From positions 2,852,001 through 2,916,000 of the forward strand of contig NZ_AP023239.1 in assembly GCF_013393385.1 (NCBI RefSeq): DNA of 64,000 nucleotides, in the 5' to 3' direction. The DNA is from Paenibacillus sp. URB8-2. Lineage in GTDB: Bacteria; Bacillota; Bacilli; Paenibacillales; Paenibacillaceae. The position numbers and the translations under genes were made by a program. This document shows, one piece after another, positions 19,589 to 46,077 of this stretch. The notes below the pieces were generated by a model. The model saw nothing but the letters and a program-made list of their open reading frames with translations. It did not search any database and had not been told where the DNA came from. How positions within the stretch are numbered: the stretch's first letter is position 1; each line of letters starts with the position of its first letter.

Positions 19589-20016
19589 ATTCAAGCTCCT
19601 TTTTTAGTTCATTTTTGACAAGTTAAGTATGCCAGAAATATTGAGCCATTATACGGAGAGTTGGGTTCAGGGAATTGTTGACCGAATATTTCGAGCTTGA
19701 TAAATAAGGTTTTACACACAAAAATCGGGCCCCGTCTCGCGACGAGGCCCTTTCATGGGAGAGGAGAAACCGGACGAAGAGCTTATGGGGAAGCGTAAGC
19801 TTGCTCCGCGGTTGTCTACGACATTTTGTGATGTCGATAATTACAGGATGACCCTTGACAGCTGATTTTATACATATCATGCAAAATTTTGTCCGCCGGC
19901 TCACGTGACGGGATGCGACAATTTTTTTTATTTAACGGCGGGAATGTGGTACGATAGGCGTGAAATTATGCCGTTTTGGCGTAATAAATAGATATACAGA
20001 GCAGGTGAAGCAAGCA
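19589..20016. other. Intergenic region upstream of rsmD with a terminator-like hairpin
   Basis: No recognisable gene. A strong hairpin (19727-19750, GGGCCCCGTC-TCGC-GACGAGGCCC) is followed on the minus strand by GATTTTTG, as if ending a minus-strand transcript from about 19900, but no protein gene fits there. A plus-strand frame of 36 codons starting at the ATG near 19755 has no support. The rsmD promoter must lie near 19930-19980. Confidence 0.4.
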
Positions 20017-33019: not shown

Positions 33020-33096
33020 TTTTCGAATTATAACGGAAATGCCCAGGAATTTAAGAATAACAGTTGGAAACGGATGGATAAGTGTTAATTTATGGA

Positions 33097-33125
33097 TTGA
33101 CAAGATTTTTGGAAAAGTCTAACAT
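33097..33125 (+). promoter_or_regulatory. Promoter upstream of the DUF2294 gene
   Basis: TTGACA, 17-bp spacer, TAACAT. The predicted start is near 33132. It probably begins the formate/hydrogenase transcript or a short leader transcript. Confidence 0.6.
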
Positions 33126-33177
33126 GTAATTAATTAAATAAAATCCCATAAAAAGATGGATATTGTGGGGTGTTTGG

Positions 33178-33528
33178 ATGTGTGAGACTGAATTCGAATG
33201 CCAGGAGAAGATTAGAAGACTCGTAGTCAAGATTGTTAAGCATTATCGGGGCAGAGGTCCGGAGAATGTAAAGGTTAAACTGGAGAATGACCTGTTAATC
33301 ACCATTGAGATTAGGGGAATTCTATCAAGTCTATCGGAAATTTTAATGAAAGAAGGCGCTGTCGATCTCGTTGCGGAATATTGGAAAGTATTAAAGCCTT
33401 ATTTGGAAAGAGAATTTATGTCCGAAATGATAGACACGCTTGGCAGCCGGTTTACATATACTTGGAAGATTGCTGAACTTTGTCCAAGCGGCCGGGCAAT
33501 TATTATTCAACTTAATAAATCGGTTTGA
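33178..33528 (+). CDS. DUF2294 (PF10057, MpsC-like) small protein
   Basis: A 116-residue soluble protein. The pattern GRGPENVKVKLENDLLITIEIRG, followed by helices around an acidic stretch, matches the DUF2294 family. Pfam links this family to a Na+-dependent system (MpsC), but the biochemical role is unclear, and such genes are also seen next to formate dehydrogenase genes. The ATG at 33178 is preferred over the upstream TTG; GGGGTG lies before it. It directly precedes fdhF, separated by a terminator-like hairpin. Confidence 0.65.
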   Translation: MCETEFECQEKIRRLVVKIVKHYRGRGPENVKVKLENDLLITIEIRGILSSLSEILMKEGAVDLVAEYWKVLKPYLEREFMSEMIDTLGSRFTYTWKIAELCPSGRAIIIQLNKSV

Positions 33529-33562
33529 TTGAAGAGAAAGGGCGTAAGCTTCTTCGCTTTTT

Positions 33563-33613
33563 AATAAGCCAGTACATGGTGTATTTCCTGACTATACTTT
33601 GTATTGGCTTATT
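33563..33613 (+). terminator. Terminator/attenuator between the DUF2294 gene and fdhF
   Basis: AATAAGCCAGTAC pairs with GTATTGGCTTATT (one G-U or mismatch) across a 25-nt loop and is followed by TTTTTTG. Because no convincing promoter follows before fdhF, it may be an attenuator that is read through under inducing conditions. Confidence 0.65.
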
Positions 33614-33628
33614 TTTTGTTGTGTCCTT

Positions 33629-33644
33629 TGTGCATAAAATCACA
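33629..33644. promoter_or_regulatory. Fnr/Crp-type box upstream of fdhF
   Basis: TGTGCATAAAATCACA fits TGTGA-N6-TCACA, the Bacillus Fnr/Crp-type consensus, with one mismatch. It lies only 19 bp before the fdhF start codon, downstream of the hairpin. This is too close for ordinary class II activation of fdhF, so repression or chance is possible. Confidence 0.4.
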
Positions 33645-33662
33645 TGAAAAGGTGGTTATCCA

Positions 33663-35807
33663 ATGGGGAACAAAGTACTGACGGTATGCCCGTATTGCGG
33701 AAGCGGATGTCAGATGCATTTGCTGGTTGAAGATGGGAAGGTCGTGGGGGCCGAGCCTGCGGATGGACGAACAAACGAAGGGAACTTGTGCCTGAAAGGT
33801 CATTATGGTTGGGACTTTCTGAATGATCCGCAGATTCTGACCGCCCGCCTTCGCAAGCCCATGATCCGCAAAGAAGGGATTTTGCAGGAGGTATCTTGGG
33901 AGGAAGCCATACAATTTACAGCAGAGAAGCTTAGTGCCATTAAAGAAAAATATGGTCCGGATGCGATTATGGGCACAGGTTCAGCCAGAGGACCGGGCAA
34001 TGAGGCCAACTATGTCATGCAAAAATTTATGCGTGCGGTGATCGGCACCAATAATATTGACCACTGCGCCAGAGTATGCCACGGTCCATCCGTGGCGGGG
34101 CTGACCTATTCGTTGGGCGATGGGGCGATGTCGAATTCGATTCCGGAGATCGAGGATACGGATCTGCTCTTCATTTTTGGTTATAATGCCGCCGTTACAC
34201 ATCCGATTGTAGCCAGAAGAATCGTCAGAGCGAAGCAGAAAGGCGCTACTATTATCGTATCCGATCCACGAAAGACAGAATCGGCTAGAATTGCAGATAC
34301 TTGGCTCCCTCTTAAAGGGGGGACAAACATGGCGCTTGTAAATGCATTTGGAAATGTACTCTTAGAGGAAGAATTATATGACAAGGATTATGTAGCCAAT
34401 TATGTAGAAGGGTTTGCTGAATATAAGGAAAGTGTGCAAAAGTATACGCCTGAATATGCCGAGAGCATCACCGGTGTAAAAGCAAATGATATTCGCAAGG
34501 TGATGCGGCAGTATGCCAATTCGAATAAAGCGATGATTCTGTATGGCATGGGGGTCTGCCAATTCGCCCAAGCGGTGGACGTTGTCAAAGGGCTCGCCTC
34601 GCTGGCGCTGCTGACCGGCCATTTTGGCAGATCCGGCGTCGGCATTGGACCGGTCCGCGGCCAGAACAACGTACAGGGCTCCTGTGATATGGGGGCATTG
34701 CCTAATGTGTATCCGGGTTATCAATCCGTTACCGATCCCAAAATACGCAAAAAGTTCGAGAAGGCCTGGGGCGTGACGCTGCCGGAAAAAACGGGGTACC
34801 ACTTAACTGAAATTCCCCATCTGGTATTGAAGGAAGACAAGGTGAAGGCCTATTACATTTTTGGTGAAGACCCCGTACAAAGTGATCCGAACGCGGCCGA
34901 GGTTAGAGAAACGCTGGAAAAGATGGAGTTTGTCATTGTGCAGGATATCTTTATGAACAAGACGGCACTGCATGCGGATGTCATCCTTCCCGCTACCTCC
35001 TGGGGCGAACATGAAGGTGTGTATTCGTCAGCCGACCGCGGATTTCAGCGGATTAGAAAAGCCATTGATCCTCCGGGGGAAGTGAAGCCGGATTGGCAGA
35101 TTATCAGCGAGGTGGCCACTGCGATGGGCTATCCGATGTCCTACCGGAATACGGAGGAGATCTGGGACGAGATGAGAGCCCTCTGTCCTAAATTTGCGGG
35201 AGCAAGCTATAAGAAGATGGAGGAGCTGGGCGGTATTCAGTGGCCTTGCCCGTCCGAAGATCATCCGGGTACACCTTATTTATATGAGGGCAACCGCTTT
35301 TCAACCCCCAACGGCAAAGGGCGGCTGTTCGCCTGTGAATGGAGAGCTCCGCTGGAGCAACCGGATCAGGAGTATCCGCTGACGCTGTCGACTGTCCGTG
35401 AAGTCGGACATTATTCCGTCCGCACCATGACCGGGAACTGCCGTGCCCTTAGCCAATTATCCGATGAGCCCGGTAATATTCAGATCAGTCCCGGGGATGC
35501 TTCGAGCCTCGGCATTCAAGATGGGCAGCTGGTAAGGATTATCTCCCGGCGGGGTAGGATTGTAGCCAGGGCGCAAATCAGCGACCGGGTCAAAACAGGC
35601 GCCACCTATATGACCTATCATTTCTGGATTGGCGCTTGCAACGAGCTGACTGGGGACGCTTTGGACCCTGTCTCGAAGACACCGGAGTATAAATATTGCG
35701 CGATTCGCCTGGAAAAGATTCCGGATCAGCTTCGTGCCGAGCAGCAGGTTCGGCAGCAATATGAGTCGCTTAAAAAGCAAATGCATGTGGGGGCGGGTCA
35801 GGCATGA
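33663..35807 (+). CDS. fdhF: Molybdopterin formate dehydrogenase, cysteine form (FdhF)
   Basis: A 714-residue catalytic subunit that interconverts formate and CO2 at a bis-MGD Mo/W centre. An N-terminal [4Fe-4S] site is present (C9, C12, C16, C43 in CPYCGSGC ... NLCLKG). The metal ligand motif reads HCARVCHGPSVAGL, so residue 139 is Cys (codon TGC) where E. coli FDH-H has Sec140, followed by the conserved His140. Further MGD-binding motifs: GPVRGQNNVQGSCDMG and the C-terminal YMTYHFWIGACNELT. No signal peptide, so cytoplasmic, and about the size of E. coli FdhF. It overlaps the next gene by ATGA. AAGGTGG is the ribosome binding site. The context with HydA and two HycB-like proteins suggests an FHL/HDCR-type complex. 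Confidence 0.95.
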   Translation: MGNKVLTVCPYCGSGCQMHLLVEDGKVVGAEPADGRTNEGNLCLKGHYGWDFLNDPQILTARLRKPMIRKEGILQEVSWEEAIQFTAEKLSAIKEKYGPDAIMGTGSARGPGNEANYVMQKFMRAVIGTNNIDHCARVCHGPSVAGLTYSLGDGAMSNSIPEIEDTDLLFIFGYNAAVTHPIVARRIVRAKQKGATIIVSDPRKTESARIADTWLPLKGGTNMALVNAFGNVLLEEELYDKDYVANYVEGFAEYKESVQKYTPEYAESITGVKANDIRKVMRQYANSNKAMILYGMGVCQFAQAVDVVKGLASLALLTGHFGRSGVGIGPVRGQNNVQGSCDMGALPNVYPGYQSVTDPKIRKKFEKAWGVTLPEKTGYHLTEIPHLVLKEDKVKAYYIFGEDPVQSDPNAAEVRETLEKMEFVIVQDIFMNKTALHADVILPATSWGEHEGVYSSADRGFQRIRKAIDPPGEVKPDWQIISEVATAMGYPMSYRNTEEIWDEMRALCPKFAGASYKKMEELGGIQWPCPSEDHPGTPYLYEGNRFSTPNGKGRLFACEWRAPLEQPDQEYPLTLSTVREVGHYSVRTMTGNCRALSQLSDEPGNIQISPGDASSLGIQDGQLVRIISRRGRIVARAQISDRVKTGATYMTYHFWIGACNELTGDALDPVSKTPEYKYCAIRLEKIPDQLRAEQQVRQQYESLKKQMHVGAGQA

Positions 35808-36475
35808 AGAGGGAACGGCCCAATTCGTTCGTCATTGCCGAAGCCGGTAAATGTATAGGCTGCAAAGCGTGCGAACTGGCCTGCTTCGCGGTGCATAACC
35901 AGGATAACGGTGTGGCTGCATCGGTAGGTACGATCACCATGCCGGTTCTTCCAAGGCTGTATGTCATCCGGTCGGACAGTTTCGCGATGCCGGTTCAATG
36001 CCGGCATTGCGAGAATGCGCCTTGCGCCGGCGTTTGTCCGGTACAAGCGATCCGGCAGGAGGAAGGCGCGATTCTGATCGATGAGGATCGCTGTATAGGC
36101 TGCAAAGCTTGTGCCATGGCTTGCCCGTTTGGCGCGGTCAGTCTTTATAAGTCGTACGGCAACGGCCAGGAGATAGAGCAGCCGTACTTAAAGGAACAGC
36201 AAAACGGCCGTTTGGAACGTAAAACAAGAATCATCGCTTATAAATGTGATTTATGCCGAAATATTGCATCAGCAGCGAATACGGTTTCTGAAGAGACAGT
36301 GACATCAGTCGCAGTTGACCAATCCGGCAGACTGACAGAAAACGGAGGCGGTTCGCTTCCCGCTTGCGTCTCAGTCTGTCCGGAACAGGCGCTGACGCTA
36401 GTTAGTCCGATCCTTGGAGAATCCCGATCACGGACGGCTGCAGATGTGGGCAGCTTGAGGAGCCTTAGATTATGA
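35804..36475 (+). CDS. HycB/HydN-like ferredoxin subunit (four [4Fe-4S]), first copy
   Basis: A 223-residue electron-transfer subunit. Four cysteine groups are visible in the HycB order: CIGCKACELAC (from residue 17), CRHCENAPCAGVCP, CIGCKACAMACP, and CDLC ... ACVSVCP, so four [4Fe-4S] clusters are expected. The fourth group is split by a roughly 30-residue insertion (SAANTVSEETVTSVAVDQSG). The C-terminal tail after residue 200 is Arg/Ser-rich and may form a helix. It overlaps fdhF and hydA by 4 bp each, implying tight co-translation. It likely wires FdhF to the hydrogenase, as HycB3 does in HDCR. Confidence 0.9.
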   Translation: MKRERPNSFVIAEAGKCIGCKACELACFAVHNQDNGVAASVGTITMPVLPRLYVIRSDSFAMPVQCRHCENAPCAGVCPVQAIRQEEGAILIDEDRCIGCKACAMACPFGAVSLYKSYGNGQEIEQPYLKEQQNGRLERKTRIIAYKCDLCRNIASAANTVSEETVTSVAVDQSGRLTENGGGSLPACVSVCPEQALTLVSPILGESRSRTAADVGSLRSLRL

Positions 36476-37908
36476 CAAACTTAATTCCAGAAAAGAAAGG
36501 TTCATCTGTGATGCCAAATATCGATCCTATTATTCATATCGATAAGCAGCTATGCACCGGCTGCAGACGGTGCGCGTCGGTATGCCCGGTGGATGCAATT
36601 ACTGGTGAAGCGGGCACTCCGCAGAGTATTGATGCACATCGCTGCGTAATTTGCGGGCAATGTATTCAGGCGTGTACTGCTTACGCGGCGGAGAGTGAAC
36701 CTTCCCTAGCCTCTCGTGCAGAGAAGCTGCGGCAAAGAGGGCAGGTTTCTAGTGTGCGTGAACCTTTATTCGCCGCCTATTCGACCGGACATGGGCTGGA
36801 GCTGAAGGAAGCGCTGGCCGATCCGAAACGGCATAAAGTCGTGCAATGCGCTCCGGTTATCCGTGTGTCGCTGGCGGAGGAATTCGGCTTGCCGTTCGGC
36901 ACATTAACGCCGGGCAAGATGGCGGCGGCGTTAAGACGGCTGAATTTTGACAGGGTGTATGACACAAATTTTGGCGCCGACGTCACGATTATGGAAGAAG
37001 GCAGTGAATTAATAGGCAGAGTCATGTCCGGCGAGCGGCTGCCTATGTTCACCTCCTGCTGCCCGGCCTGGGTCAAGCATGCGGAGACGACCGCGCCGCA
37101 GTTGCTGGAGCATCTGTCAAGCTGCAAGTCGCCAATGCAAATGATAGGAGCCTTGGTCAAGACCTACAGCGCTGAAGTTGATGGAGTTGATCCTGCAGAT
37201 ATCCTAAGTGTGGCGGTAATGCCCTGTACTTGTAAGAAATTTGAAGCCGGTAGGGAAGAAATGAATGTCGACGGGCATCAGGAAGTGGATCTGGTTATTA
37301 CAACGAGGGAACTGGCCCAGTTAATCAAGGATAAAGGCATTGACTTCATCAATCTTCCCGACGAACCGTTTGACTCGCCTTTAGGGAAGTATTCCGGAGC
37401 AGGAACGATCTTTGGCGCAACCGGAGGAGTCATGGAAGCGGCGATCCGAACAGGGTATGAGCTGATGACACACGAGTCCATCCCGAATCTTCAGCTCGAT
37501 TTTATCAGAGGGGATGAAGGGATTCGTACGGCAGCGGTGCAGATTGGGGATTTGGAGCTCAAGGTGGCTATGGTCGCGGGACTTAAATATGTATCATCCA
37601 TTCTGGAACAAGTGGCCGAGGGAACCTGCCCTTATCACTTTATAGAAGTCATGGCCTGTCCCGAAGGATGCGTCAGCGGCGGCGGCCAACCGAAGCTTCT
37701 GCTGGAAACGCAGCGAAAAAGCGCTTATCAGGCGCGAAAGAGTTCAATTTACCGTCATGACGCCAATCAGAAGGTCCGCAAGTCGCATGAGAACCCGGCC
37801 ATTATTAAATTATACAAAGATTTTTTAGGCGAGCCTTTAGGCCATGCCTCACATCATTTGCTGCATACCAAGTTCATTTCCAGAAGTGCCAAGGAGGAGT
37901 TGTCATGA
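36472..37908 (+). CDS. hydA: [FeFe] hydrogenase catalytic subunit
   Basis: A 478-residue hydrogenase. Two N-terminal [4Fe-4S] clusters are bound by C28/C31/C34/C38 and C58/C61/C64/C68. The H-cluster domain has all three classical motifs: TSCCPAW (194-200), MPCTCKKFE (250-258) and EVMACPEGCVSGG (392-404). The proton-path segments DTNFGADVTIMEE and SSCKSP are also canonical, including the proton-relay Cys of TSCC. This is the group A (prototypical) sequence type, without the extra [2Fe-2S] or His-ligated cluster. Length and domain order fit the HydA2 subunit of HDCR and other short monomeric-type enzymes. It overlaps both flanking HycB-like genes by ATGA. Confidence 0.95.
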   Translation: MTNLIPEKKGSSVMPNIDPIIHIDKQLCTGCRRCASVCPVDAITGEAGTPQSIDAHRCVICGQCIQACTAYAAESEPSLASRAEKLRQRGQVSSVREPLFAAYSTGHGLELKEALADPKRHKVVQCAPVIRVSLAEEFGLPFGTLTPGKMAAALRRLNFDRVYDTNFGADVTIMEEGSELIGRVMSGERLPMFTSCCPAWVKHAETTAPQLLEHLSSCKSPMQMIGALVKTYSAEVDGVDPADILSVAVMPCTCKKFEAGREEMNVDGHQEVDLVITTRELAQLIKDKGIDFINLPDEPFDSPLGKYSGAGTIFGATGGVMEAAIRTGYELMTHESIPNLQLDFIRGDEGIRTAAVQIGDLELKVAMVAGLKYVSSILEQVAEGTCPYHFIEVMACPEGCVSGGGQPKLLLETQRKSAYQARKSSIYRHDANQKVRKSHENPAIIKLYKDFLGEPLGHASHHLLHTKFISRSAKEELS

Positions 37909-38489
37909 ACAGTTTCGTACTTGCCGATCCCGATAAATGTATTGGATGTCATACTTGTGAAGCAGCCTGTGTCGTTGCCCATTCGGGAAACCGTCTCTTT
38001 GAGCAGGAAGAAAGCGGTATTGCATTCTACCCGCGTCTCACCGTAATCGAAACGGATGAAGTTACCGCTCCCATCCAGTGCAGACATTGCGAGGATGCGC
38101 CTTGTGCCAATGTGTGCCCGAATGGCTCGATTACGAACAAGAACAATAGCATTTTTATTAACCAGGATACGTGTATTGGCTGTAAAACCTGCATGCTGGC
38201 CTGTCCCTATGGGGCGATTACGATGGTTACCGCGTATCAGGATGGTCAGAAGCAGCGGCAATCCGGCCTGCGGACAAATGCTGAGGGCGCATGGAGCCGG
38301 AAGGAAAGAATCGTAGCGAACAAATGCGATCTGTGTGATGAACGCGGAAATGGACCGGAATGTGTACGTGTATGCCCGACGGATGCGCTCCGGTTCATTG
38401 TACCCGGCCAAATCGATGAGTCGATTGCGCGGAAAAGAATGGCCAGTGCGCAGTTGCTGCAGCAGTTTGGCAGCTTATCCGGCTATTGA
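37905..38489 (+). CDS. HycB-like ferredoxin subunit (four [4Fe-4S]), second copy
   Basis: A 194-residue paralogue of the 35804 product. It has four compact cysteine groups: CIGCHTCEAAC, CRHCEDAPCANVCP, CIGCKTCMLACP and CDLCDERGNGPECVRVCP. The C-terminal end (DESIARKRMASAQLLQQFG) is predicted to be an amphipathic helix; in the T. kivui HDCR, C-terminal helices of HycB subunits build filaments. Whether this tail does the same is unknown. Stop overlaps the open frame before moaA. Confidence 0.9.
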   Translation: MNSFVLADPDKCIGCHTCEAACVVAHSGNRLFEQEESGIAFYPRLTVIETDEVTAPIQCRHCEDAPCANVCPNGSITNKNNSIFINQDTCIGCKTCMLACPYGAITMVTAYQDGQKQRQSGLRTNAEGAWSRKERIVANKCDLCDERGNGPECVRVCPTDALRFIVPGQIDESIARKRMASAQLLQQFGSLSGY

Positions 38490-38548
38490 GCCCGTTTATA
38501 TTTCATCCAGGCATCATTCACAAAAATGTAGAAAGCAAGGTGAATCCT

Positions 38549-39586
38549 TTGTCCGATCCTCTGGTTGACTCTTTTGGCCGTGTACATAATTATGTGCGAA
38601 TCTCCGTTACGGACCGCTGTAATCTTGGCTGTCAATATTGCAGGACGGGGAATACAGCCGAGTATACTTCCAAGATGGACCTGCTCACCTTTGACGAGAT
38701 AGTTGCCATCGTAAATGTACTTGCAGAGATGGGCGTCACTAAGGTGAGGATTACCGGTGGAGAGCCGCTCCTTCGGCCACATCTTGAAGAACTTGTATCA
38801 AGACTGAGCTCCGTATCGGGCATACGGCGCATTGGACTGACAACCAACGGTATGCTGCTGGCGTCCAAGGCTCGCGCGCTTCTCAAGGCGGGGTTGACTG
38901 ACGTGAATATCAGTCTGGATTCCCTGCTCCCTGAGCGGTACGCAAACATAACGCGCGGCGGCAATTTGTCCCGGGTAATGAGGGCGGTGGAAGCCTGCTT
39001 TGAGGCCGGATTCAAAATGCTGAAGCTCAATGTAGTACTCATGCAGGGAGTTAATGACGACGAAATCGAGTCTTTTTTGCGGCTAACGCTGGATTATCCT
39101 CTGCAAATCCGTTTTATTGAATATATGCCTATCGGCGTTCAAGCAGAGGGGTGGAAAGCGGGATATATGCCGCTGGAAGGTATTATGGCCCAATGTGCGG
39201 AGAGAGGTTGGGACGCACGGCGTGTTGTGCCTGCCGATAGTCTGTCCAATCCATCTTTTTGCGGAACGGCTGCCGATTCGGGGCCGACGAGGTATTACCG
39301 GATTTCCGGTGCTGCCGGAGAATTCGGCCTGATTAATCCGGTTAGCGATCATTTCTGCATGGACTGCAACCGGCTGCGCATAACGGCGAACGGGCATATC
39401 AAGCCCTGCCTTTATTGGAACGACGAGCGGGATATCAAGCCGTTTATCGGCAATGATGAGATGCTGAGACAAGAAATCCGGCGATCGCTCGAAGCCAAAC
39501 CGCAGCGGCATGAAATGATCGTTCAGCCGAACCACAAGCCTACGCAGCATGCTATGCTGCGTCAGATGTCTCAAATTGGCGGGTGA
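38549..39586 (+). CDS. moaA: GTP 3',8-cyclase MoaA (molybdenum cofactor synthesis)
   Basis: A 345-residue radical SAM enzyme performing the first step of molybdopterin synthesis. N-terminal cluster CNLGCQYC binds [4Fe-4S]-SAM; the C-terminal cluster is CMDCNRLRITANGHIKPC; the chain ends in the conserved double glycine (MSQIGG). The TTG start at 38549 is chosen because AAGGTGA lies 5 nt before it; the frame is open further upstream to 38486, overlapping the previous gene, but those residues are not family-like. It presumably supplies cofactor for FdhF. No other moa/moe/mob genes lie in the window. Confidence 0.9.
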   Translation: MSDPLVDSFGRVHNYVRISVTDRCNLGCQYCRTGNTAEYTSKMDLLTFDEIVAIVNVLAEMGVTKVRITGGEPLLRPHLEELVSRLSSVSGIRRIGLTTNGMLLASKARALLKAGLTDVNISLDSLLPERYANITRGGNLSRVMRAVEACFEAGFKMLKLNVVLMQGVNDDEIESFLRLTLDYPLQIRFIEYMPIGVQAEGWKAGYMPLEGIMAQCAERGWDARRVVPADSLSNPSFCGTAADSGPTRYYRISGAAGEFGLINPVSDHFCMDCNRLRITANGHIKPCLYWNDERDIKPFIGNDEMLRQEIRRSLEAKPQRHEMIVQPNHKPTQHAMLRQMSQIGG

Positions 39587-39593
39587 AACCGGA

Positions 39594-41015
39594 ATGAGTG
39601 ATGAATTGAGATTCCGTATGGAACAGGATTCGCTTGGCAGTGCTCCAGTGCCTCGGGATGCCTATTATGGGATTCATACCGTACGTGCGCGGGATAATTT
39701 TGCGGTCAGCGGCCGCCCGGCCCATCGGCAGCTTATGCAGGCCATGGTGTTGGTCAAGAAAGCCGCAGCCAAAGTAAACGGACGGCATGGAGATATTCCA
39801 GAGTATGCCGCTGAGGCGATTCAGTTGTCCTGCGACGATATTCTGGGAGGCATGTTGGATGATCATTTTATCGTGGATGCCTATCAGGGCGGAGCGGGAA
39901 CCAGCACCAACATGAATGTGAACGAGATGATCGCAAACCGGGCAATCGAGCGGCTTGGAGGAACGAAGGGAGACTATCGGTTAATCCATCCGATTGATCA
40001 TGTAAATCTATATCAGTCCACGAATGACGTCTATCCGACCGCTCTGCGTATCGCTGTCATTCCTCTGCTGCGATTACTGAGTGAAGAGCTGTCTTCCCTT
40101 CAGGAAGCGTTGCAGGAGAAGGAGCGGCAATATGCCGATGTATTAAGGCTGGGCCGGACTCAGCTTATGGATGCGCTGCCGATCATGGCCGGTCAGAGCT
40201 TCGGCGCCTACGCCAAGGCGGTAGCCCGTGACCGGTGGCGGCTCTATAAAGCGGAGGAACGGCTTCGGGAGATCAATATCGGCGGTACGGCTGTCGGCAC
40301 GGGGATGAATGCGCCGCTTAAGTATACTTATGCCATTGCGGAGGAGCTCCGTGAAATGACCGGGCTCGGGTTATGCCGCAGCGATTTTCCAATGGATGCC
40401 ACTCAGAATATGGATGTGTTCGTGGAAACTTCGGGCTTGCTGAAAGCGGCCGCAGTGAATCTGCTGAAGATATCGGGCGACTTCCGGCTGCTGAATTCGG
40501 GATCTTCCGGTGGCATTGGCGAATATAAGCTGCCCGCTGTACAGGTCGGCTCCTCCATTATGCCCGGTAAGGTCAATCCGGTCATCGCCGAGATGGCCGG
40601 GTCCGTCGCGATGCGCGTGATCGCCAACGATACGGCGGTGACACTGGCGGCGGCAAGCGGACAACTGGAGCTTAATGCGTTTACGCCCTTGATTGCCGAG
40701 GCGCTGCTGGAATCCCTGGAGCTGCTGAGCCATGCCGTGCCGCTGTTCACGGAACGATGTGTTCAGGGGTTAACGCTGGACCCCATCCGTTGTCAAGAGC
40801 ATCTGGACCGTTCGGGGGTGATGGCTGCGGCAACGGTATCCTATCTAGGGTATGACACCGCAGCTGAGCTGGCTGCGGCCATGGCGGCCACGGGACAGCC
40901 GCTTGGACAGCTACTGCGGGAACACGGCCTAATGGCAGATGAGCAAATTGAAGCGATCCTTCATCCGCTTGAAGTTACCAAACCGGGGATTCCCGGAAGT
41001 GGCAGAAGGGTCTGA
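39594..41015 (+). CDS. aspA: Aspartate ammonia-lyase
   Basis: A 473-residue member of the aspartase/fumarase superfamily, converting aspartate to fumarate and ammonium. The signature GSSIMPGKVNP is at about 325 and the substrate loop includes YQGGAGTSTNMNVNEMIANRA and the HVNLYQSTNDVYPTA segment. These favour aspartase over fumarase; the two are hard to separate by eye. The ATG at 39594 follows GGGTGAAACC. It sits between moaA and hydF in the hydrogenase operon, so a role in maturation (ammonium for the azadithiolate bridge) or in fermentative redox balance is possible. Confidence 0.85.
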   Translation: MSDELRFRMEQDSLGSAPVPRDAYYGIHTVRARDNFAVSGRPAHRQLMQAMVLVKKAAAKVNGRHGDIPEYAAEAIQLSCDDILGGMLDDHFIVDAYQGGAGTSTNMNVNEMIANRAIERLGGTKGDYRLIHPIDHVNLYQSTNDVYPTALRIAVIPLLRLLSEELSSLQEALQEKERQYADVLRLGRTQLMDALPIMAGQSFGAYAKAVARDRWRLYKAEERLREINIGGTAVGTGMNAPLKYTYAIAEELREMTGLGLCRSDFPMDATQNMDVFVETSGLLKAAAVNLLKISGDFRLLNSGSSGGIGEYKLPAVQVGSSIMPGKVNPVIAEMAGSVAMRVIANDTAVTLAAASGQLELNAFTPLIAEALLESLELLSHAVPLFTERCVQGLTLDPIRCQEHLDRSGVMAAATVSYLGYDTAAELAAAMAATGQPLGQLLREHGLMADEQIEAILHPLEVTKPGIPGSGRRV

Positions 41016-41046
41016 ACCCAGGTAGGAAAACGAAGGAGAGCACTCT

Positions 41047-42303
41047 ATGAGCTTGATCGATACACCACGCGGAGAACGACTGCACCTTGCCGTCTTCGGG
41101 CGGCGCAATGCCGGTAAATCGAGTGTAATTAACGCGCTTGGCGGGCAGGAGACCTCGATTGTTTCCCCGGTGAGCGGTACGACCACCGACCCGGTCTATC
41201 AACCGATGGAGCTGCTGCCGGCGGGCCCAGTGGTACTTATTGATACAGCCGGACTGGATGACGTTGGCGATTTGGGGCAGCTGCGTGTACACAAAACTAT
41301 GCGAATTCTAAACAAAACGGATTTGGCGATGGTTGCGGTAGATGCCACCCAGGGAGCAGACGAATTTGAGCGGGAGCTGCTGCGGACGATTGCCGCCAGA
41401 GAAATTCCGGCGATTGTGATTTTAAACAAAATCGATCTGCTTACCGCGCAAGGAGATGAAGGAGAGGCCGACTCGGCGGCGGCACGAGTGGAAGCCGTAA
41501 TTGGCTGCAAGCCGATTTGTTTAAGCGCCGCCACGGGATGTGGAATCGGCGAATTAAAGACGGCGATTGCAGCAGCCTTGCCGAGGGGAGAAGACAAGTT
41601 CCGGATTGTCGGCGACCTGTTAAGTCCTGGTGATCTGGCTGTTCTTGTCGTCCCGATCGACAAGGCCGCGCCTAAAGGGAGGCTGATCCTGCCCCAGCAG
41701 CAGACCATTCGCGACATTATGGAATGCGATGCGGTAGCTGTGGTGACCAAGGAACAAGAACTCGGGCATACACTGGCCGCAATGGGGCGCAAGCCTAGAT
41801 TGGTGATCACAGATTCGCAGGCTTTCCTGAAAGCCCAAGCCGATACCCCGAAGGATGTTCCGTTAACCTCCTTCTCCATTTTGTTTGCCCGCTACAAAGG
41901 CGATCTTCCCCGGCTTGTAGGCGGGGTGAGGGCGATCAGCCGCCTGCGTGACGGCGACCGGGTGCTGATTGCGGAAGCTTGTACCCATCATCGGCAATCC
42001 GATGATATCGCCACCGTCAAGATTCCCCGCTGGCTGCGGGAAAAGACGGGCAGGCAGCTTCAAATCGATCATGCCGCCGGCAGTGATTTTCCTGAAGGGT
42101 TGGAACAGTATTCCCTTATCATCCATTGCGGAGCCTGCATCCTGAATCGCAGAGCGATGCTGCAGCGAATGGAGGAAGCCAGGGTTGCGGGGGTCCCGAT
42201 TGTCAATTATGGCGTGTTTATTGCCTATGTCCATGGGGTATTCCCAAGGGCGATTGAAATGTTCCCGTCCGCGATGCTGGCCTGGGCAGAGGAAGGAAGT
42301 TAA
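41047..42303 (+). CDS. hydF: [FeFe] hydrogenase maturation GTPase HydF
   Basis: A 418-residue scaffold GTPase on which the [2Fe] subcluster is assembled before transfer to HydA. N-terminal GTPase: FGRRNAGKSSVINAL (P-loop), GTTTDPV, DTAG and NKID. C-terminal [4Fe-4S] site follows the CxH ... HCxxC rule: CTHH near residue 315 and IHCGACI near 363. AAGGAGAG ribosome binding site. Last gene of the plus-strand operon. Confidence 0.95.
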   Translation: MSLIDTPRGERLHLAVFGRRNAGKSSVINALGGQETSIVSPVSGTTTDPVYQPMELLPAGPVVLIDTAGLDDVGDLGQLRVHKTMRILNKTDLAMVAVDATQGADEFERELLRTIAAREIPAIVILNKIDLLTAQGDEGEADSAAARVEAVIGCKPICLSAATGCGIGELKTAIAAALPRGEDKFRIVGDLLSPGDLAVLVVPIDKAAPKGRLILPQQQTIRDIMECDAVAVVTKEQELGHTLAAMGRKPRLVITDSQAFLKAQADTPKDVPLTSFSILFARYKGDLPRLVGGVRAISRLRDGDRVLIAEACTHHRQSDDIATVKIPRWLREKTGRQLQIDHAAGSDFPEGLEQYSLIIHCGACILNRRAMLQRMEEARVAGVPIVNYGVFIAYVHGVFPRAIEMFPSAMLAWAEEGS

Positions 42304-42321
42304 AGATCTGTATGTTAAATG

Positions 42322-42359
42322 AAAGCACCCGGTTCCTTGTTACAGGTTCCGGGTGCTTT
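42322..42359. terminator. Bidirectional terminator between hydF and hydG
   Basis: Perfect 11-bp stem AAAGCACCCGG / CCGGGTGCTTT flanked by T and A runs. It separates the two convergent hydrogenase transcripts. Confidence 0.88.
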
Positions 42360-42375
42360 TTATGATGACTGTTTG

Positions 42376-43797
42376 TCAGAACCGCAGGTCCCGTTCACCT
42401 GCCCGGATGCGTCGCAGCTGCTTTATCGTTGCTTTTTTGACCGATTCCTTGGGAATGCGTTCCAGGTTCTCGCGAATCGTCTGTTCGCCAATGGCGCGCA
42501 TTTCCTCATCGGCATAGTCCAGCAGATATTCCTGGAAGGTCATTAAGGAATTCGGCTGGCATACATTATGAATTTGCCCCGATTTCGCCAGCTGCATAAA
42601 GCGGTCCCCCGTCCGTCCTTCCCGGTAACATGCGGTGCAGTAGCTGGGAACATAGCCGTCTCGGCACAGGTTCTTGATAATTTCCATAGGAGAGCGTTGA
42701 TCGCCGACTGTGAACTGCGGCTTGTCGTCTTTGCCTTTATTGACGCTATACGCGCCAACGCCGGTAGCTGAGCCTGCGCTGATCTGTGATATTCCCAGTT
42801 TAATAATCTGGTCGCGGTATTCCGGGTCCTCACGTGTAGACAAGATCATTCCTGTATAAGGTACGGCCATTCTCAATACGGCGACAATCTTCGCGAAATC
42901 GTGGTCACCCACAAGATGGGGGTAATTATCCAGATTCACGTTCTCTGCTTCGCGCAGGCGGGGGACAGAGATCGTATGCGGCCCGCAGCCAAACGTCTGC
43001 TCCAGATGTTCGGCGTGTTTCAGCATGGCAATGGTCTCGTATTTATAATCATAGAGTCCGTACAGGACGCCGATGCCAACATCATCGATTCCGGATTTCA
43101 TTGCCCGGTCCATGGCGGTCGTGTGCCAGTCATAATCGCTTTTGGGTCCCTGTGGGTGGTAATTGTGATAACTGGGTCTGTGATAAGTCTCTTGGAATAA
43201 AATATAGGTTCCGATCCCGGCATCCGCCAGTTTGCGGTATTCTTCCTCTGTCGTGGCGGCAATATTGATGTTAATCCGCCGGATACTGCCATTGTCCAGC
43301 TTGGTGTCGTATATGGTCCGGATACATTCCAGGATGTAGTCGATGGAACAATGGTTAGGGTCTTCACCCGCTTCAAGGACAAGCCGTTTATGGCCAAGTG
43401 ACTGAAGTACCTGGACCTCCTGGGCAATTTCATCTTGAGTGAGACGGCTGCGTACAAACTCGGAATTGGAATGCTTGTATCCGCAATAGACACAGTTATT
43501 GACACAGTAGTTGCTGACATAGAGGGGGGCGAACAGGACGATCCGGTTGCCGTATATCCGTTCCTTGATTTCCCTGGACACCTGGTACAGCTGTTCCAGC
43601 GTAGCTTCATCATTCACATGCAGCAGCACCGCAGCTTCCCGGGAGGTCAGCCCTTTGCACGTTCTCGCTTTGTCCAGGATTGCGGTTACGATCTGGCTGT
43701 CGTTTATTGCCGCCTCCCCGTATTGCAGGGATTCCTTGATTTCCTCGTCCTGAATAAAATCCGCCGGACGGCGCTCATTCACTCGGTTCACGAACAT
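42376..43797 (-). CDS. hydG: [FeFe] hydrogenase maturase HydG (tyrosine lyase)
   Basis: A 473-residue radical SAM enzyme that cleaves tyrosine to make CO and CN ligands of the H-cluster. N-terminal motif CVNNCVYC (CX3CX2C); the C-terminal auxiliary cluster has the exact CX2CX22C spacing (CTAC ... C), needed for the dangler-Fe site. The ATG at 43797 gives family-typical length (MFVNRVNERRPADF then IQDEEIKESL). The frame is open to a TTG at 43908 that overlaps the hydE stop, but the added residues are not family-like. Confidence 0.95.
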   Translation of the reverse strand: MFVNRVNERRPADFIQDEEIKESLQYGEAAINDSQIVTAILDKARTCKGLTSREAAVLLHVNDEATLEQLYQVSREIKERIYGNRIVLFAPLYVSNYCVNNCVYCGYKHSNSEFVRSRLTQDEIAQEVQVLQSLGHKRLVLEAGEDPNHCSIDYILECIRTIYDTKLDNGSIRRININIAATTEEEYRKLADAGIGTYILFQETYHRPSYHNYHPQGPKSDYDWHTTAMDRAMKSGIDDVGIGVLYGLYDYKYETIAMLKHAEHLEQTFGCGPHTISVPRLREAENVNLDNYPHLVGDHDFAKIVAVLRMAVPYTGMILSTREDPEYRDQIIKLGISQISAGSATGVGAYSVNKGKDDKPQFTVGDQRSPMEIIKNLCRDGYVPSYCTACYREGRTGDRFMQLAKSGQIHNVCQPNSLMTFQEYLLDYADEEMRAIGEQTIRENLERIPKESVKKATIKQLRRIRAGERDLRF

Positions 43798-43904
43798 CCA
43801 CTTCTTTCTGGGTTCATTAATGGCAAAAAAAGAAGGCTGAACTTCGCCCGATTGATTTCCTGCGAAATTACAGACAAACGACAGGTCACAAATGACCTTT
43901 GTTC

Positions 43905-45044
43905 TCAAAAAACATCCAGCCGGGCCGGAGGGCTAGACAACCAGTTCAGACTGTCTCCTCGGCCCATATTGACATGAAAGCCGGCGTCCTCAATCCGCTG
44001 CTCCAGACAGAACCTGCACTGCGCAGATTCATCTCCCGTACAAATTTTATTATTATATAATGTATATTTCGGACGAACGGACAGCGGGGACAGATTAGGC
44101 ATGACTACATTTGCACCCGCTTTTAATGCGAGTTCCCGCCCATACGGATGGACGGTTCCCATCGCTGTGGTAGCCGGAATCAAGGCGTTCGGCACAAACA
44201 GTCGCGCAAGTGCGATCATATCAAGTGTGGCTTCTAAGGTTCCGGCCGGCTCGTCCTTTAAAGGTGTAGCTTGATGCGGCAAAAATGGACCGATGCCAAT
44301 CATGTCCGGATTAAGCTCCTTGAGGTACAGTAAGTCCTCGGCCAAGTCTTTGTGCGTCTGTCCGGGCAATCCGACCATAAACCCGGCTCCGACCTGATAG
44401 CCGATCGCTTTAAGGGCACGCAAGCGGTCCCGCCGATTCTCAAAAGTCATGGTCGGATGCAGCGTCTGGTAGAGTCTGCTGGAAGCTGTCTCATGACGCA
44501 GCAAATAACGGTCAGCACCCGCTTCAAATAACCGGGTATACGTCTCGTCGTCACGTTCGCCTATCGAGAGCGTCACAGCGGTATCCGGATAGCGCCGTTT
44601 GATATCAGCAATAAGGCGCGAGAGCTTGTCCGTTGTGTACCAATCGTCTTCTCCGCTCTGCAGAAAGAAGGTGCGATAGCCCAAATCGTAACCCTCCCGG
44701 CAGCACTCCAAGATTTCATCGGGCCGGAGCCGATAGCGGCTGACTGTCTTATTGGCGGAGCGTATCCCGCAGTACATGCAGTTTTGTTTGCAGATATTGG
44801 AGAATTCAATCAGCCCCCGCAGATACACCCCTGTTCCGTAATAGGCCACCCGCTTCTGATGGGCAAGAGTATGCAGCCGCCTTCGGGATGCCTCGTCCAA
44901 TCTATCAAGCAGATAGACAATTTCTTCGGAATCCAGGGATTCTTGCGCGTTTAAACGATCCAATAAATATTCCGTTGAACATCCCTCCTTAAACTGAACA
45001 GGTGCATCTTTCTTGCAACAGCTAACATGAAAATAATGTAACAA
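43905..45044 (-). CDS. hydE: [FeFe] hydrogenase maturase HydE
   Basis: A 379-residue (longest frame) radical SAM protein of the biotin-synthase-like class that acts in dithiomethylamine-bridge and [2Fe] assembly. CKQNCMYC binds the SAM cluster; a second CTGDESAQCRFC near the C-terminus could bind an extra cluster. Conserved core: FLQSGEDDWYTTDKL and GFMVGLPGQTHKDLAEDL. The start is uncertain: the frame opens at TTG 45044 without a visible ribosome binding site, while a textbook AAGGAGGGATG (ATG at 44982-44980) is out of frame by one base. About 50 bp downstream of fdhD. Confidence 0.9.
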   Translation of the reverse strand: MLHYFHVSCCKKDAPVQFKEGCSTEYLLDRLNAQESLDSEEIVYLLDRLDEASRRRLHTLAHQKRVAYYGTGVYLRGLIEFSNICKQNCMYCGIRSANKTVSRYRLRPDEILECCREGYDLGYRTFFLQSGEDDWYTTDKLSRLIADIKRRYPDTAVTLSIGERDDETYTRLFEAGADRYLLRHETASSRLYQTLHPTMTFENRRDRLRALKAIGYQVGAGFMVGLPGQTHKDLAEDLLYLKELNPDMIGIGPFLPHQATPLKDEPAGTLEATLDMIALARLFVPNALIPATTAMGTVHPYGRELALKAGANVVMPNLSPLSVRPKYTLYNNKICTGDESAQCRFCLEQRIEDAGFHVNMGRGDSLNWLSSPPARLDVF

Positions 45045-45093
45045 AAGTAAAAATGAAGAACTATGAGCTTTTTGCTTGAAATGACAGATATGT

Positions 45094-45909
45094 TCAATTG
45101 TGGTTTAGGAGCATACAATCGCTGATACGGTCCGGGCGCGTATACACGTTGCATGAATCCTGACGGATGAAACCGACTGTCGTGATGCCGAGCTGTTCAG
45201 CCAGCTCAAGGGCCAGCGCCGTGGGAGCGGATTTGGACAAAATGATTTCACAACCGATTTTGGCGACCTTCAGCAGAATTTCCGATGAAATACGGCCGCT
45301 GAACACGATGATTTTGTTGTCCAGGTTCATCTCGTGCCTTAGGCAGTGGCCGTAAATTTTGTCTAGCGCATTATGACGGCCAATGTCGCTGCGGGCGAGC
45401 AGCACTCCGCCGGTATCGCAAATCGCGGCGGAGTGGACCCCGCCCGTTCGGTGAAACAGCTCCGCACCCGTCTGCACTTCTTCCATCAGGCGAAAACAAT
45501 CTTTAAAGGATAAAGAGACATGAATGCCGTCGATGATTTTGGCAGTTCTTGCATCGTTGACATATACAAACCCATGGCGGCCTGCACCGCAGCAGGAAGT
45601 GACATATCGCTTGGCATATAACTGGCGGTGAAGATCATTCCAGCGGTCTGTGGAGATGTGTACGTACCCTTCTTCTTCCTGCGTCCACATTTCTTTAATA
45701 TCTCGAATTCCCCGAATGATGCCTTCAGAGGCCAAGTAACCGATTGCCATGTCTTCAATGTATTCGGGGGTGCATACCAGAGTCACGAATTCTTCGCCGT
45801 TAATCTTAAGTGTGACCGGATGTTCCGTCACAATGAGATCCGGTTCTCTGGTGATTCGGCCTTGCCGGTAACGAATAATGTGTCCTTGTTGTTCAGGTAC
45901 CCGCTTCAT
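45094..45909 (-). CDS. fdhD: Formate dehydrogenase sulfur-carrier FdhD
   Basis: A 271-residue protein that inserts the sulfido ligand into the Mo/W cofactor of formate dehydrogenase. The reactive cysteines lie in the loop TSCCGAGRHGF, as in the Bacillales form, with later conserved FHRTGGVHSAAIC, SDIGRHNALDKIYG and FSGRISSEILLK. The ATG at 45909 lies 8 nt after AAGGGTGATGG. It heads a minus-strand transcript fdhD-hydE-hydG, joining FDH and hydrogenase maturation in one unit. Confidence 0.95.
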   Translation of the reverse strand: MKRVPEQQGHIIRYRQGRITREPDLIVTEHPVTLKINGEEFVTLVCTPEYIEDMAIGYLASEGIIRGIRDIKEMWTQEEEGYVHISTDRWNDLHRQLYAKRYVTSCCGAGRHGFVYVNDARTAKIIDGIHVSLSFKDCFRLMEEVQTGAELFHRTGGVHSAAICDTGGVLLARSDIGRHNALDKIYGHCLRHEMNLDNKIIVFSGRISSEILLKVAKIGCEIILSKSAPTALALELAEQLGITTVGFIRQDSCNVYTRPDRISDCMLLNHN

Positions 45910-46077
45910 TTCCATCACCCTTATTAATGAAGATTTGGAATATAGAAAAATAACTTTAATAGAAAAAAATAGAAATTCAAACATCATTACTACATCACTT
46001 ATTGCAATTAATGTCAATTTTATATTTCACAATCCAGCTCAATTTCTTCATCCTGTTCCTTCATTGCAACGTTCTAT

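What the first reader, a model, noticed from the sequence alone, without database searches (positions are those of the whole stretch)
33178..46017. Candidate HDCR/formate-hydrogen-lyase module based on an [FeFe] hydrogenase in a Paenibacillus-type genome
Seen: fdhF, a HycB-like ferredoxin gene, hydA and a second HycB-like gene, joined by 4-bp ATGA overlaps. This subunit set (FdhF + two HycB + HydA) equals that of the hydrogen-dependent CO2 reductase described in acetogens (A. woodii, T. kivui), where it runs H2 + CO2 <-> formate directly. Known: classical enterobacterial FHL uses a [NiFe] hydrogenase and membrane subunits; none are seen here. Inferred: a soluble formate/H2 enzyme, possibly filament-forming, in a facultative fermenter that is not an acetogen. 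Physiological direction would probably be formate disposal.
Basis: partly seen in the sequence, partly recalled or inferred. Interest (0 to 1): 0.85.

Follow-up and report, generated by a model that had tools for sequence, protein, structure and literature searches.

The report
Formate-to-hydrogen enzyme with leader RNA
A Paenibacillus-type bacterium carries genes for an enzyme that is predicted to turn waste formate into hydrogen gas and CO2, a kind already proposed for this genus, and in front of them lie a small companion gene and a conserved, predicted RNA fold that likely control the operon.

Summary
In detail: fdhF, hycB, hydA, hycB are joined by 4-bp overlaps amid moaA, an aspA-like gene, hydF, hydG, hydE, fdhD. 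HydA falls in one clade with T. kivui HDCR HydA2. The genome shows no [NiFe] hydrogenase, no CdhC/ACS match, one [FeFe] HydA and one PFL-like gene. An HDCR-type formate hydrogenlyase is well supported by sequence, but not new: a 2018 review proposed it for Paenibacillus, and a 2026 paper purified the recombinant C. beijerinckii complex. New here: (1) a DUF2294/MpsC-family gene heads the operon; it, a two-stem terminator-like RNA (33528-33617) and HDCR-type HydA occur in the same 17 of 100 genus genomes. The RNA recurs in Clostridium and covaries. (2) In all 17 the HycB4-type subunit has an enlarged cluster-site gap and a shortened or eroded C-terminal tail, the part reported to build T. kivui filaments, so such filaments are doubtful. 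A link to nif genes fails a phylogenetic control. What the DUF2294 protein and RNA do is inferred.

The parts
33097..33125 (+). promoter-like TTGACA-17-TAACAT ahead of the first gene
   Evidence: 12 such matches in the region against 13.5 in shuffles; same motif (16-18 nt spacer) ahead of the gene in 17 of 17 genus loci. Consensus match, not tested.
33178..33528 (+). DUF2294/MpsC-family gene (116 aa), found only with HDCR-type HydA in this genus sample
   Evidence: PF10057 33.6 bits, cut-off 23; 17 of 100 genus genomes, the same 17 as HDCR-type HydA
33528..33565 (+). leader RNA stem P1
   Evidence: 6 of 13 pairs with changes on both sides
33566..33617 (+). leader RNA stem P2 plus U-tract, terminator-like
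   Evidence: (z -6.06)
33629..33644 (+). palindromic Fnr/Rex-like box TGTGCATAAAATCACA
   Evidence: 1 mismatch; 2 found, 1.12 expected by chance in the window; within 1 mismatch in 14 of 17 genus loci; regulator names are recalled
33663..35807 (+). fdhF, Cys-type formate dehydrogenase
35804..36475 (+). hycB-a, HycB4-type electron-transfer subunit
36472..37908 (+). hydA, [FeFe] hydrogenase of HDCR type
37905..38489 (+). hycB-b, second electron-transfer subunit
38486..39586 (+). moaA, molybdenum cofactor synthesis (start as listed by the ORF tool)
   Evidence: TIGR02666 350.4 bits
39549..41015 (+). aspartate ammonia-lyase-like gene
   Evidence: NF008909 603.6 bits
41047..42303 (+). hydF, H-cluster maturation GTPase
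   Evidence: TIGR03918
42376..43908 (-). hydG, H-cluster maturase
   Evidence: TIGR03955
43905..45044 (-). hydE, H-cluster maturase (radical SAM; name by position)
   Evidence: PF04055; not scanned against NCBIfam
45094..46017 (-). fdhD, formate dehydrogenase sulfurtransferase
   Evidence: TIGR00129

Best explanation
This is a gene cassette for an HDCR-type enzyme (formate dehydrogenase, [FeFe] hydrogenase and two iron-sulfur relay proteins) that is predicted to split fermentation formate into H2 and CO2, and its structural genes are preceded by a DUF2294-family gene and a conserved, predicted two-stem RNA that likely decides whether transcription continues into them. Shown: gene content, order and overlaps; HydA kinship with T. 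kivui HDCR; no [NiFe] hydrogenase or CdhC match in the genome; the co-occurrence in 100 genomes; the RNA's conservation and covariation. Inferred from kin: pyruvate formate-lyase makes formate, FdhF oxidises it, electrons pass through the HycB clusters to HydA, which makes H2; MoaA and FdhD would serve FdhF, HydE/F/G the H-cluster. Inferred from layout: transcription starts ahead of the DUF2294 gene, meets the terminator-like P2 stem, and reads on only when an unknown signal allows. The order 'small gene, conserved hairpin, structural genes' resembles pyrR- or glpP-type operons (recalled), so the DUF2294 protein is the first candidate for the factor acting on the RNA.
For: HydA: 708 bits to T. 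kivui HDCR HydA2 7qv7_D, next 392; clade at SH-aLRT 98 with it, C. diolis and Clostridium HDCR-type HydAs; 65% identity. HycB-a with T. kivui HycB4, 99/95. FdhF 76% identical to a protein named from C. beijerinckii, a species whose recombinant complex was purified and runs both ways (passages, PMC12905484). Sole [FeFe] HydA, no [NiFe], no CdhC, one PFL-like gene. Leader: DUF2294 gene in 17 of 100 genus genomes, HDCR HydA in 17, RNA in 17 at E <= 5.1e-12, the same genomes; the best RNA match in any other genome is E 0.022. Covariation: 9 pairs changed on both sides, 4.9 expected by shuffling (2 of 500 reach it); 21 such cells against 6.1 (0 of 500); slid structures 2-5 pairs. DUF2294 gene directly upstream of fdhF in three Clostridium loci. 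Held-out RNA match ahead of a second fdhF in C. magnum, 55.8 bits, E 3e-7.
Against: No activity, expression or binding data. FdhF is closer to E. coli FdhH (1009 bits) than to T. kivui FdhF (740). The outer P2 stem hardly varies, so covariation rests mainly on P1 and inner P2; 'further pair types' is not above its shuffles (26 against 23.8, 67 of 500); the structure was read from single folds of these sequences before it was counted. HDCR-type clusters occur in genomes in which no DUF2294 gene of this kind was found: C. ragsdalei, Pelosinus, C. difficile, Sporobacter, a Bacillota MAG, Halodesulfovibrio, and Anaerospora (whose stretch shows no fdhF), so it is not needed for HDCR as such. In one of the 17 (G053) the DUF2294 frame is broken. 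Co-occurrence inside one genus is partly shared descent. The DUF2294 protein is not strongly basic (median pI 7.9).
Confidence: 0.72

Rival explanations
1. The same enzyme runs mainly the other way in the cell, as in acetogens, fixing H2 (for example from nitrogenase) and CO2 into formate, perhaps feeding C1 metabolism or reversed PFL.
For: Characterised HDCRs and the C. beijerinckii complex are reversible. All 17 HDCR genomes carry nifH over cut-off (54 of 100 overall), Fisher p 7e-6.
Against: No CdhC/ACS match; the nif link is clade-bound: 4 independent pairs, sign test median p 1. The eroded HycB4 tail does not suggest selection for filament-boosted CO2 reduction.
Confidence: 0.13
2. The two-stem RNA is a ligand-sensing riboswitch (for example for a cofactor or metal of the enzyme), and the DUF2294 protein is a separate accessory (assembly or insertion factor for FdhF/HydA).
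For: Covarying structure with sequence-conserved joints GAUU and AUAA. In C. magnum a copy stands ahead of an fdhF that has no DUF2294 gene beside it.
Against: Short, two hairpins only; no Rfam match at gathering score. Every strong RNA match lay in a genome that also has the DUF2294 gene, though outside the genus only the fetched stretches were searched for the RNA.
Confidence: 0.3
3. The hairpin is just the ordinary transcription terminator of the DUF2294 gene, and fdhF has its own promoter.
For: Strong stem plus U-tract right behind the gene; a conserved palindromic box lies between it and fdhF. In C. magnum a P2-like hairpin follows the DUF2294 gene without fdhF (34.6 bits with R1; only 25.8 bits, E 0.16, with R2).
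Against: Ordinary terminators are not expected to keep the letters of both arms and a covarying stem P1 across Paenibacillus and Clostridium; a copy ahead of a C. magnum fdhF follows no ORF of 50 aa or more on its strand within about 400 nt.
Confidence: 0.25
4. HydA and FdhF act separately here: HydA with ferredoxin or NADH, FdhF with another acceptor.
For: FdhF is nearest the E. coli FDH-H type, HydA the T. kivui HDCR type, so the pair could be a recent assembly.
Against: 4-bp overlaps and constant gene order in Paenibacillus and Clostridium; a homologous recombinant set from C. beijerinckii genes co-purifies.
Confidence: 0.05

Closest known systems
HDCR of Thermoanaerobacter kivui / Acetobacterium woodii
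   Same: FdhF + HydA2 + two HycB; HydA in one clade with T. kivui HydA2; HycB-a of HycB4 type; Cys-type FdhF as reported for T. kivui
   Different: no CdhC/ACS match in the genome; FdhF nearer E. coli FdhH than T. kivui FdhF; HycB4-type tail shortened and its CDxC-to-C gap 15-38 residues against 7; gene order fdhF-hycB-hydA-hycB (in T. kivui both hycB lie between fdhF and hydA2); DUF2294 gene and leader RNA in front
CbFdh/Hyd of Clostridium beijerinckii (2026, PMC12905484)
   Same: same subunits in a non-acetogen; the recombinant complex runs both ways; a FdhF named from this species is 76% identical
   Different: fdhF and hydA in two predicted operons there; recombinant complex above 1.3 MDa; no leader described in the passages read
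Putative Paenibacillus HDCR clusters (2018 review, PMC6288185)
   Same: the same proposal: HDCR replacing FHL for formate disposal
   Different: the passages read name no DUF2294 gene, RNA element or HycB4 change
E. coli formate hydrogenlyase
   Same: FdhF homologue (1009 bits), likely role
   Different: [NiFe] hydrogenase and membrane arm there; none found here
S. aureus MpsC
   Same: Pfam family PF10057
   Different: there beside a bicarbonate transporter and reported not to be a functional part of it; here beside fdhF

Membership tests
HDCR (group A4-type Fdh/[FeFe] hydrogenase complex) | fdhF, hydA and two hycB genes together | tested here: met
HDCR (group A4-type Fdh/[FeFe] hydrogenase complex) | HydA in the clade of a characterised HDCR HydA2 | tested here: met
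   (SH-aLRT 98, quick tree)
HDCR (group A4-type Fdh/[FeFe] hydrogenase complex) | HycB4-type subunit | tested here: met
   HycB-a with T. kivui HycB4 at 99/95
HDCR (group A4-type Fdh/[FeFe] hydrogenase complex) | HycB3-type subunit | tested here: inconclusive
   HycB-b groups mostly with downstream HycBs, but T. kivui HycB3 (long branch, 1.38) falls on the other side of the tree
HDCR (group A4-type Fdh/[FeFe] hydrogenase complex) | filament-forming C-terminal helices on HycB3 and HycB4 | tested here: inconclusive
   HycB-b tail kept; HycB-a tail 23-30 residues against 32 in four Clostridium, with its pattern lost in several; HycB-a model too poor, pLDDT 53.4
HDCR (group A4-type Fdh/[FeFe] hydrogenase complex) | no membrane or bifurcating subunits in the cluster | tested here: met
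HDCR (group A4-type Fdh/[FeFe] hydrogenase complex) | reversible H2 + CO2 / formate exchange | not testable with these tools
   needs the enzyme
Classical enterobacterial FHL | [NiFe] hydrogenase with membrane arm | tested here: not met
   no PF00374 match in the genome
HDCR of an acetogen (Wood-Ljungdahl) | acetyl-CoA synthase | tested here: not met
   no PF03598 match in the one-contig genome (among the 14 controls only two archaea rang)
DUF2294 / MpsC (PF10057) | score over Pfam cut-off | tested here: met
   33.6 bits, cut-off 23; 8 of 8 aligned members match the family at E <= 1
Known Rfam RNA family | match at or above a gathering score | tested here: not met
   (the one sub-threshold match, SCARNA7 at 33066-33203, is not at the element)
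Attenuated operon headed by its regulator (pyrR/glpP type) | small first gene, conserved hairpin with U-tract, then structural genes | tested here: met
   layout only, the comparison is recalled
Attenuated operon headed by its regulator (pyrR/glpP type) | the first gene's protein binds the RNA | not testable with these tools
   no clear structural relative found

The most novel reading that the evidence does not exclude
The DUF2294 protein is a new kind of RNA-binding antiterminator (or attenuator) that acts on a new two-stem leader RNA to switch HDCR operons in Paenibacillus and Clostridium, giving a first function for this protein family; and the Paenibacillus branch has given up T. kivui-like filaments while turning HDCR into a formate disposal enzyme.
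Probability: 0.22. Interest if true: 0.78.

Novelty: new variant of a known kind. Interest (0 to 1): 0.5.

Why it matters
The enzyme itself confirms a published proposal. What is added is a testable handle on how HDCR synthesis is controlled: one promoter-like site, one small gene and one RNA, kept together in Paenibacillus and the RNA and gene also in Clostridium. It offers a possible function for DUF2294, a family whose S. aureus member was found dispensable for the transporter beside it, and a natural comparison, eroded against intact HycB4 tails, for the question whether HDCR filaments matter for CO2 reduction or for formate splitting. HDCRs are of interest for hydrogen storage, so a native on/off element would be useful.

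Tried and rejected
Link to nitrogen fixation: 17 of 17 HDCR genomes are nifH+ (over cut-off) against 37 of 83 others (Fisher 7e-6), and 37 of 39 genomes with any [FeFe] HydA against 17 of 61; but on an SMC tree of 99 genomes (G089 dropped, no SMC match; five rows are partial) independent pairs give no support (4 pairs, median p 1). Kept only as a remark.

HycB-a structure: mean pLDDT 53.4; it draws a C-terminal helix 204-222, but at pLDDT under 50, so it was not used.

RNA: weak matches dismissed: G061, G042, G012 (E 0.022-0.1); C. difficile L035 1188-1260 (30.7 bits, E 0.019, found on both strands, about 4.9 kb from fdhF) and L106 (25.3 bits, E 0.21). The genus search scored 48 candidates a genome with stricter filters and may lose weak copies. 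RNAalifold alone gave little covariation on the shorter alignment A7 (1 of 12 pairs); the full element A8 with a structure read from single folds gave 9 of 30, so the structure was chosen after looking at the sequences. Plasmid search for the DUF2294 protein: no match.

Literature (9 searches used): DUF2294 gave 1 paper, on a fungus (listing); 3 papers hold both 'hydrogen-dependent CO2 reductase' and Paenibacillus; 16 hold two of Paenibacillus, formate hydrogen lyase, HDCR; 23 hold four of five Paenibacillus/nitrogen-fixing/hydrogenase terms (15 listed); 24 hold four of five riboswitch/formate dehydrogenase terms, none of the 15 listed seen to describe this RNA (listing only); YbcI 5 papers (listing). 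Papers of subscription journals are mostly not held; the T. kivui cryo-EM paper itself was not read and is cited second-hand.

Full report
WHAT IS THERE. The window is bases 2852001-2916000 of a one-contig 5.58-Mb genome. The named proteins nearest to its HydA and FdhF are from Paenibacillus (P. zanthoxyli 92%, Paenibacillus sp. 94%). The cluster reads: DUF2294/MpsC-family gene 33178-33528, fdhF, hycB-a, hydA, hycB-b, moaA, aspA-like, hydF on the + strand, and fdhD, hydE, hydG on the - strand converging on it. The 4-bp ATGA overlaps of fdhF, hycB, hydA and hycB are correct. The same order stands in 10 of 10 wide loci of the same genus, two of them with an insertion between hydA and hycB-b.

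WHAT KIND OF ENZYME. HydA matches T. kivui HDCR HydA2 with 708 bits, the next solved structure with 392, and lies with it, with C. diolis and with Clostridium HDCR-type HydAs in one clade (SH-aLRT 98) apart from the longer, bifurcating-type HydAs (50 rows, a hand choice among the loci held). HycB-a sits with T. kivui HycB4 (99/95). HycB-b groups mostly with other downstream HycBs; its tie to T. kivui HycB3 is unresolved. FdhF keeps the Cys where E. coli FdhH has Sec and is nearer to FdhH (1009 bits) than to T. kivui FdhF (740), but 76% identical to a FdhF named from C. beijerinckii. Several Clostridium fdhF frames here break near codon 140, as a Sec codon would do (the codon itself was not read).

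WHAT IT LIKELY DOES. This is the only [FeFe] hydrogenase found in the genome; no [NiFe] large subunit (control rang in 8 of 14 genomes) and no CdhC/ACS (control rang in 2 archaea of 14) were found; one PFL-like gene is present, as in 98 of 100 genus genomes at least one is. So formate made by PFL is likely split to H2 + CO2. [quoted passage not shown] A 2015 study saw H2 from P. polymyxa and supported an FHL by modelling (passages of PMC4583153). In 2026 a homologous complex from genes of the non-acetogen C. beijerinckii was made in E. coli, purified and shown to run both ways (abstract and passages of PMC12905484). The core finding is therefore a member of a known kind.

FILAMENTS. Filamentation of T. 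kivui HDCR is reported to depend on C-terminal helices of HycB3 and HycB4 (passage of PMC10413684). In 17 of 17 genus members the HycB4-type protein has 15-38 residues between CDxC and the next cluster Cys (7 in four Clostridium and in C. difficile, 9 in P. terrae and P. brasilensis) and a tail of 23-30 residues after the last CP, against 32 in the four Clostridium (29 in C. difficile) with the pattern RNxAAALSL; in five Paenibacillus (G026, G027, G030, G048, G053) the pattern is gone, in others partly kept. Of the three subunits compared HycB-a changes fastest (mean identity to the window 70.9% over 17, HycB-b 79.2% over 15, HydA 85.3% over 17). HycB-b keeps its tail. The window's own HycB-a keeps a partial SRSRTAA match. 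The AlphaFold model of HycB-a was too poor to judge. I infer that T. kivui-like filaments are doubtful here; this is not shown, and the C. beijerinckii complex is reported above 1.3 MDa.

A COMPANION FIRST GENE. The DUF2294-family gene was found in 17 of 100 genus genomes at E <= 0.001, HDCR-type HydA (79% identity or more) in 17, and they are the same genomes; 22 further genomes, and G027 besides, have another HydA at 48-54%. In G053 the DUF2294 frame is broken. Three Clostridium genomes have it directly upstream of fdhF (C. thailandense, G120, G121), as do P. terrae (two strains) and P. brasilensis. Of 17 named genomes searched whole, 6 matched at E <= 0.01, 5 of them strongly; genomes with HDCR-type clusters but no match were C. 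ragsdalei, Pelosinus, C. difficile, Sporobacter, a Bacillota MAG, Halodesulfovibrio, and Anaerospora (no fdhF in its stretch). In the small genus sample around C. thailandense 4 of 7 matched. Staphylococcal MpsC is reported not to be a working part of the bicarbonate transporter (passages of PMC6689103, PMC8552792), so the Pfam name tells little here.

A LEADER RNA. Between that gene and fdhF lies a predicted two-stem RNA: P1 33528-33565, P2 33566-33610, U-tract to 33617. The window's P2 folds at -23 kcal/mol, z -6.06. In an alignment of 20 elements (of 25 distinct ones; three close ones left out, two held out) 93.7% of cells pair; 9 pairs change on both sides against 4.9 in shuffles (2 of 500 reach it), 21 cells against 6.1 (0 of 500), covariation score 0.203 against 0.144 (0 of 500), slid structures give 2-5 pairs; 'further pair types' does not stand out (67 of 500). 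P1 carries 6 of the 9; for example A-U of most rows is C-G in the three P. terrae/brasilensis rows at one pair. The outer P2 stem is nearly invariant and says little by itself. Model R1 finds one strong copy in each of the 17 HDCR genomes and none like it in the other 83 (E <= 5.1e-12 against 0.022 and worse). No Rfam family matches at gathering score.

In C. magnum a copy that is in neither model (55.8 bits, E 3e-7 with R2) stands about 350 nt ahead of a second, C. ragsdalei-like fdhF without a DUF2294 gene beside it, while the DUF2294 gene lies on another contig, beside tandem hydA genes and followed by a P2-like hairpin (34.6 bits with R1, weak with R2). The other C. magnum HDCR cluster of that locus has no copy. 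The stop codon of the DUF2294 gene lies at the edge of P1 in six Paenibacillus loci read and inside P1 in three Clostridium, so the conserved GAUU is not explained by coding. A promoter-like TTGACA-N16-18-TAACAT stands ahead of the gene in 17 of 17, and a palindromic box between RNA and fdhF in 14 of 17 at one mismatch or less.

MECHANISM. I commit to this: one transcript starts ahead of the DUF2294 gene; P2 ends most of it until a signal lets polymerase pass into fdhF-hycB-hydA-hycB. Shown: layout, conservation, pairing in silico. Inferred: termination, the signal, and the DUF2294 protein as the factor.

NIF. HDCR genomes are all nifH+ (17 of 17), but so is most of their clade; 4 independent pairs leave no support.

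VERDICT. Observation confirmed; interpretation supported but already in print; the leader RNA with its companion gene and the HycB4 change make it a new variant. Interest 0.5.

Noticed in passing
L117-L122 (own-genus genomes G091, G043, G082, G087, G055, G059): Another [FeFe] system: tandem hydA (576-634 aa) with hydE, hydG, two hydF-like genes and aspA; in L117 also genes that look like 2-oxoacid:ferredoxin oxidoreductase and a NuoE-like subunit (by eye, not scanned). 23 of 100 genomes have this HydA; only G027 has both types.
   Followed up: partly
own genome and genus: 37 of 39 genomes with any [FeFe] HydA carry nifH over cut-off, against 17 of 61 others; clade-bound on an SMC tree.
   Followed up: partly
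L114 9876-11120: A transposase-like gene (IS110-like by recalled look) sits between hydA and hycB-b in genome G090 (HydA 79% to the window); G051 (L115) has a similar gap.
   Followed up: no
L253 4389-9145 (C. magnum): DUF2294-family gene beside a tandem hydA pair instead of fdhF.
   Followed up: partly
window 35804-36475: HycB4-type subunit with a long, length-variable insert (36 residues between CDLC and the next Cys in the window) inside an iron-sulfur cluster motif.
   Followed up: partly
G053:C1:5987217-5987572: DUF2294-family gene in two frame pieces in one HDCR genome.
   Followed up: no
window 19718-19811: ylbH leader RNA (RF00516, 56.8 bits), unrelated.
   Followed up: no
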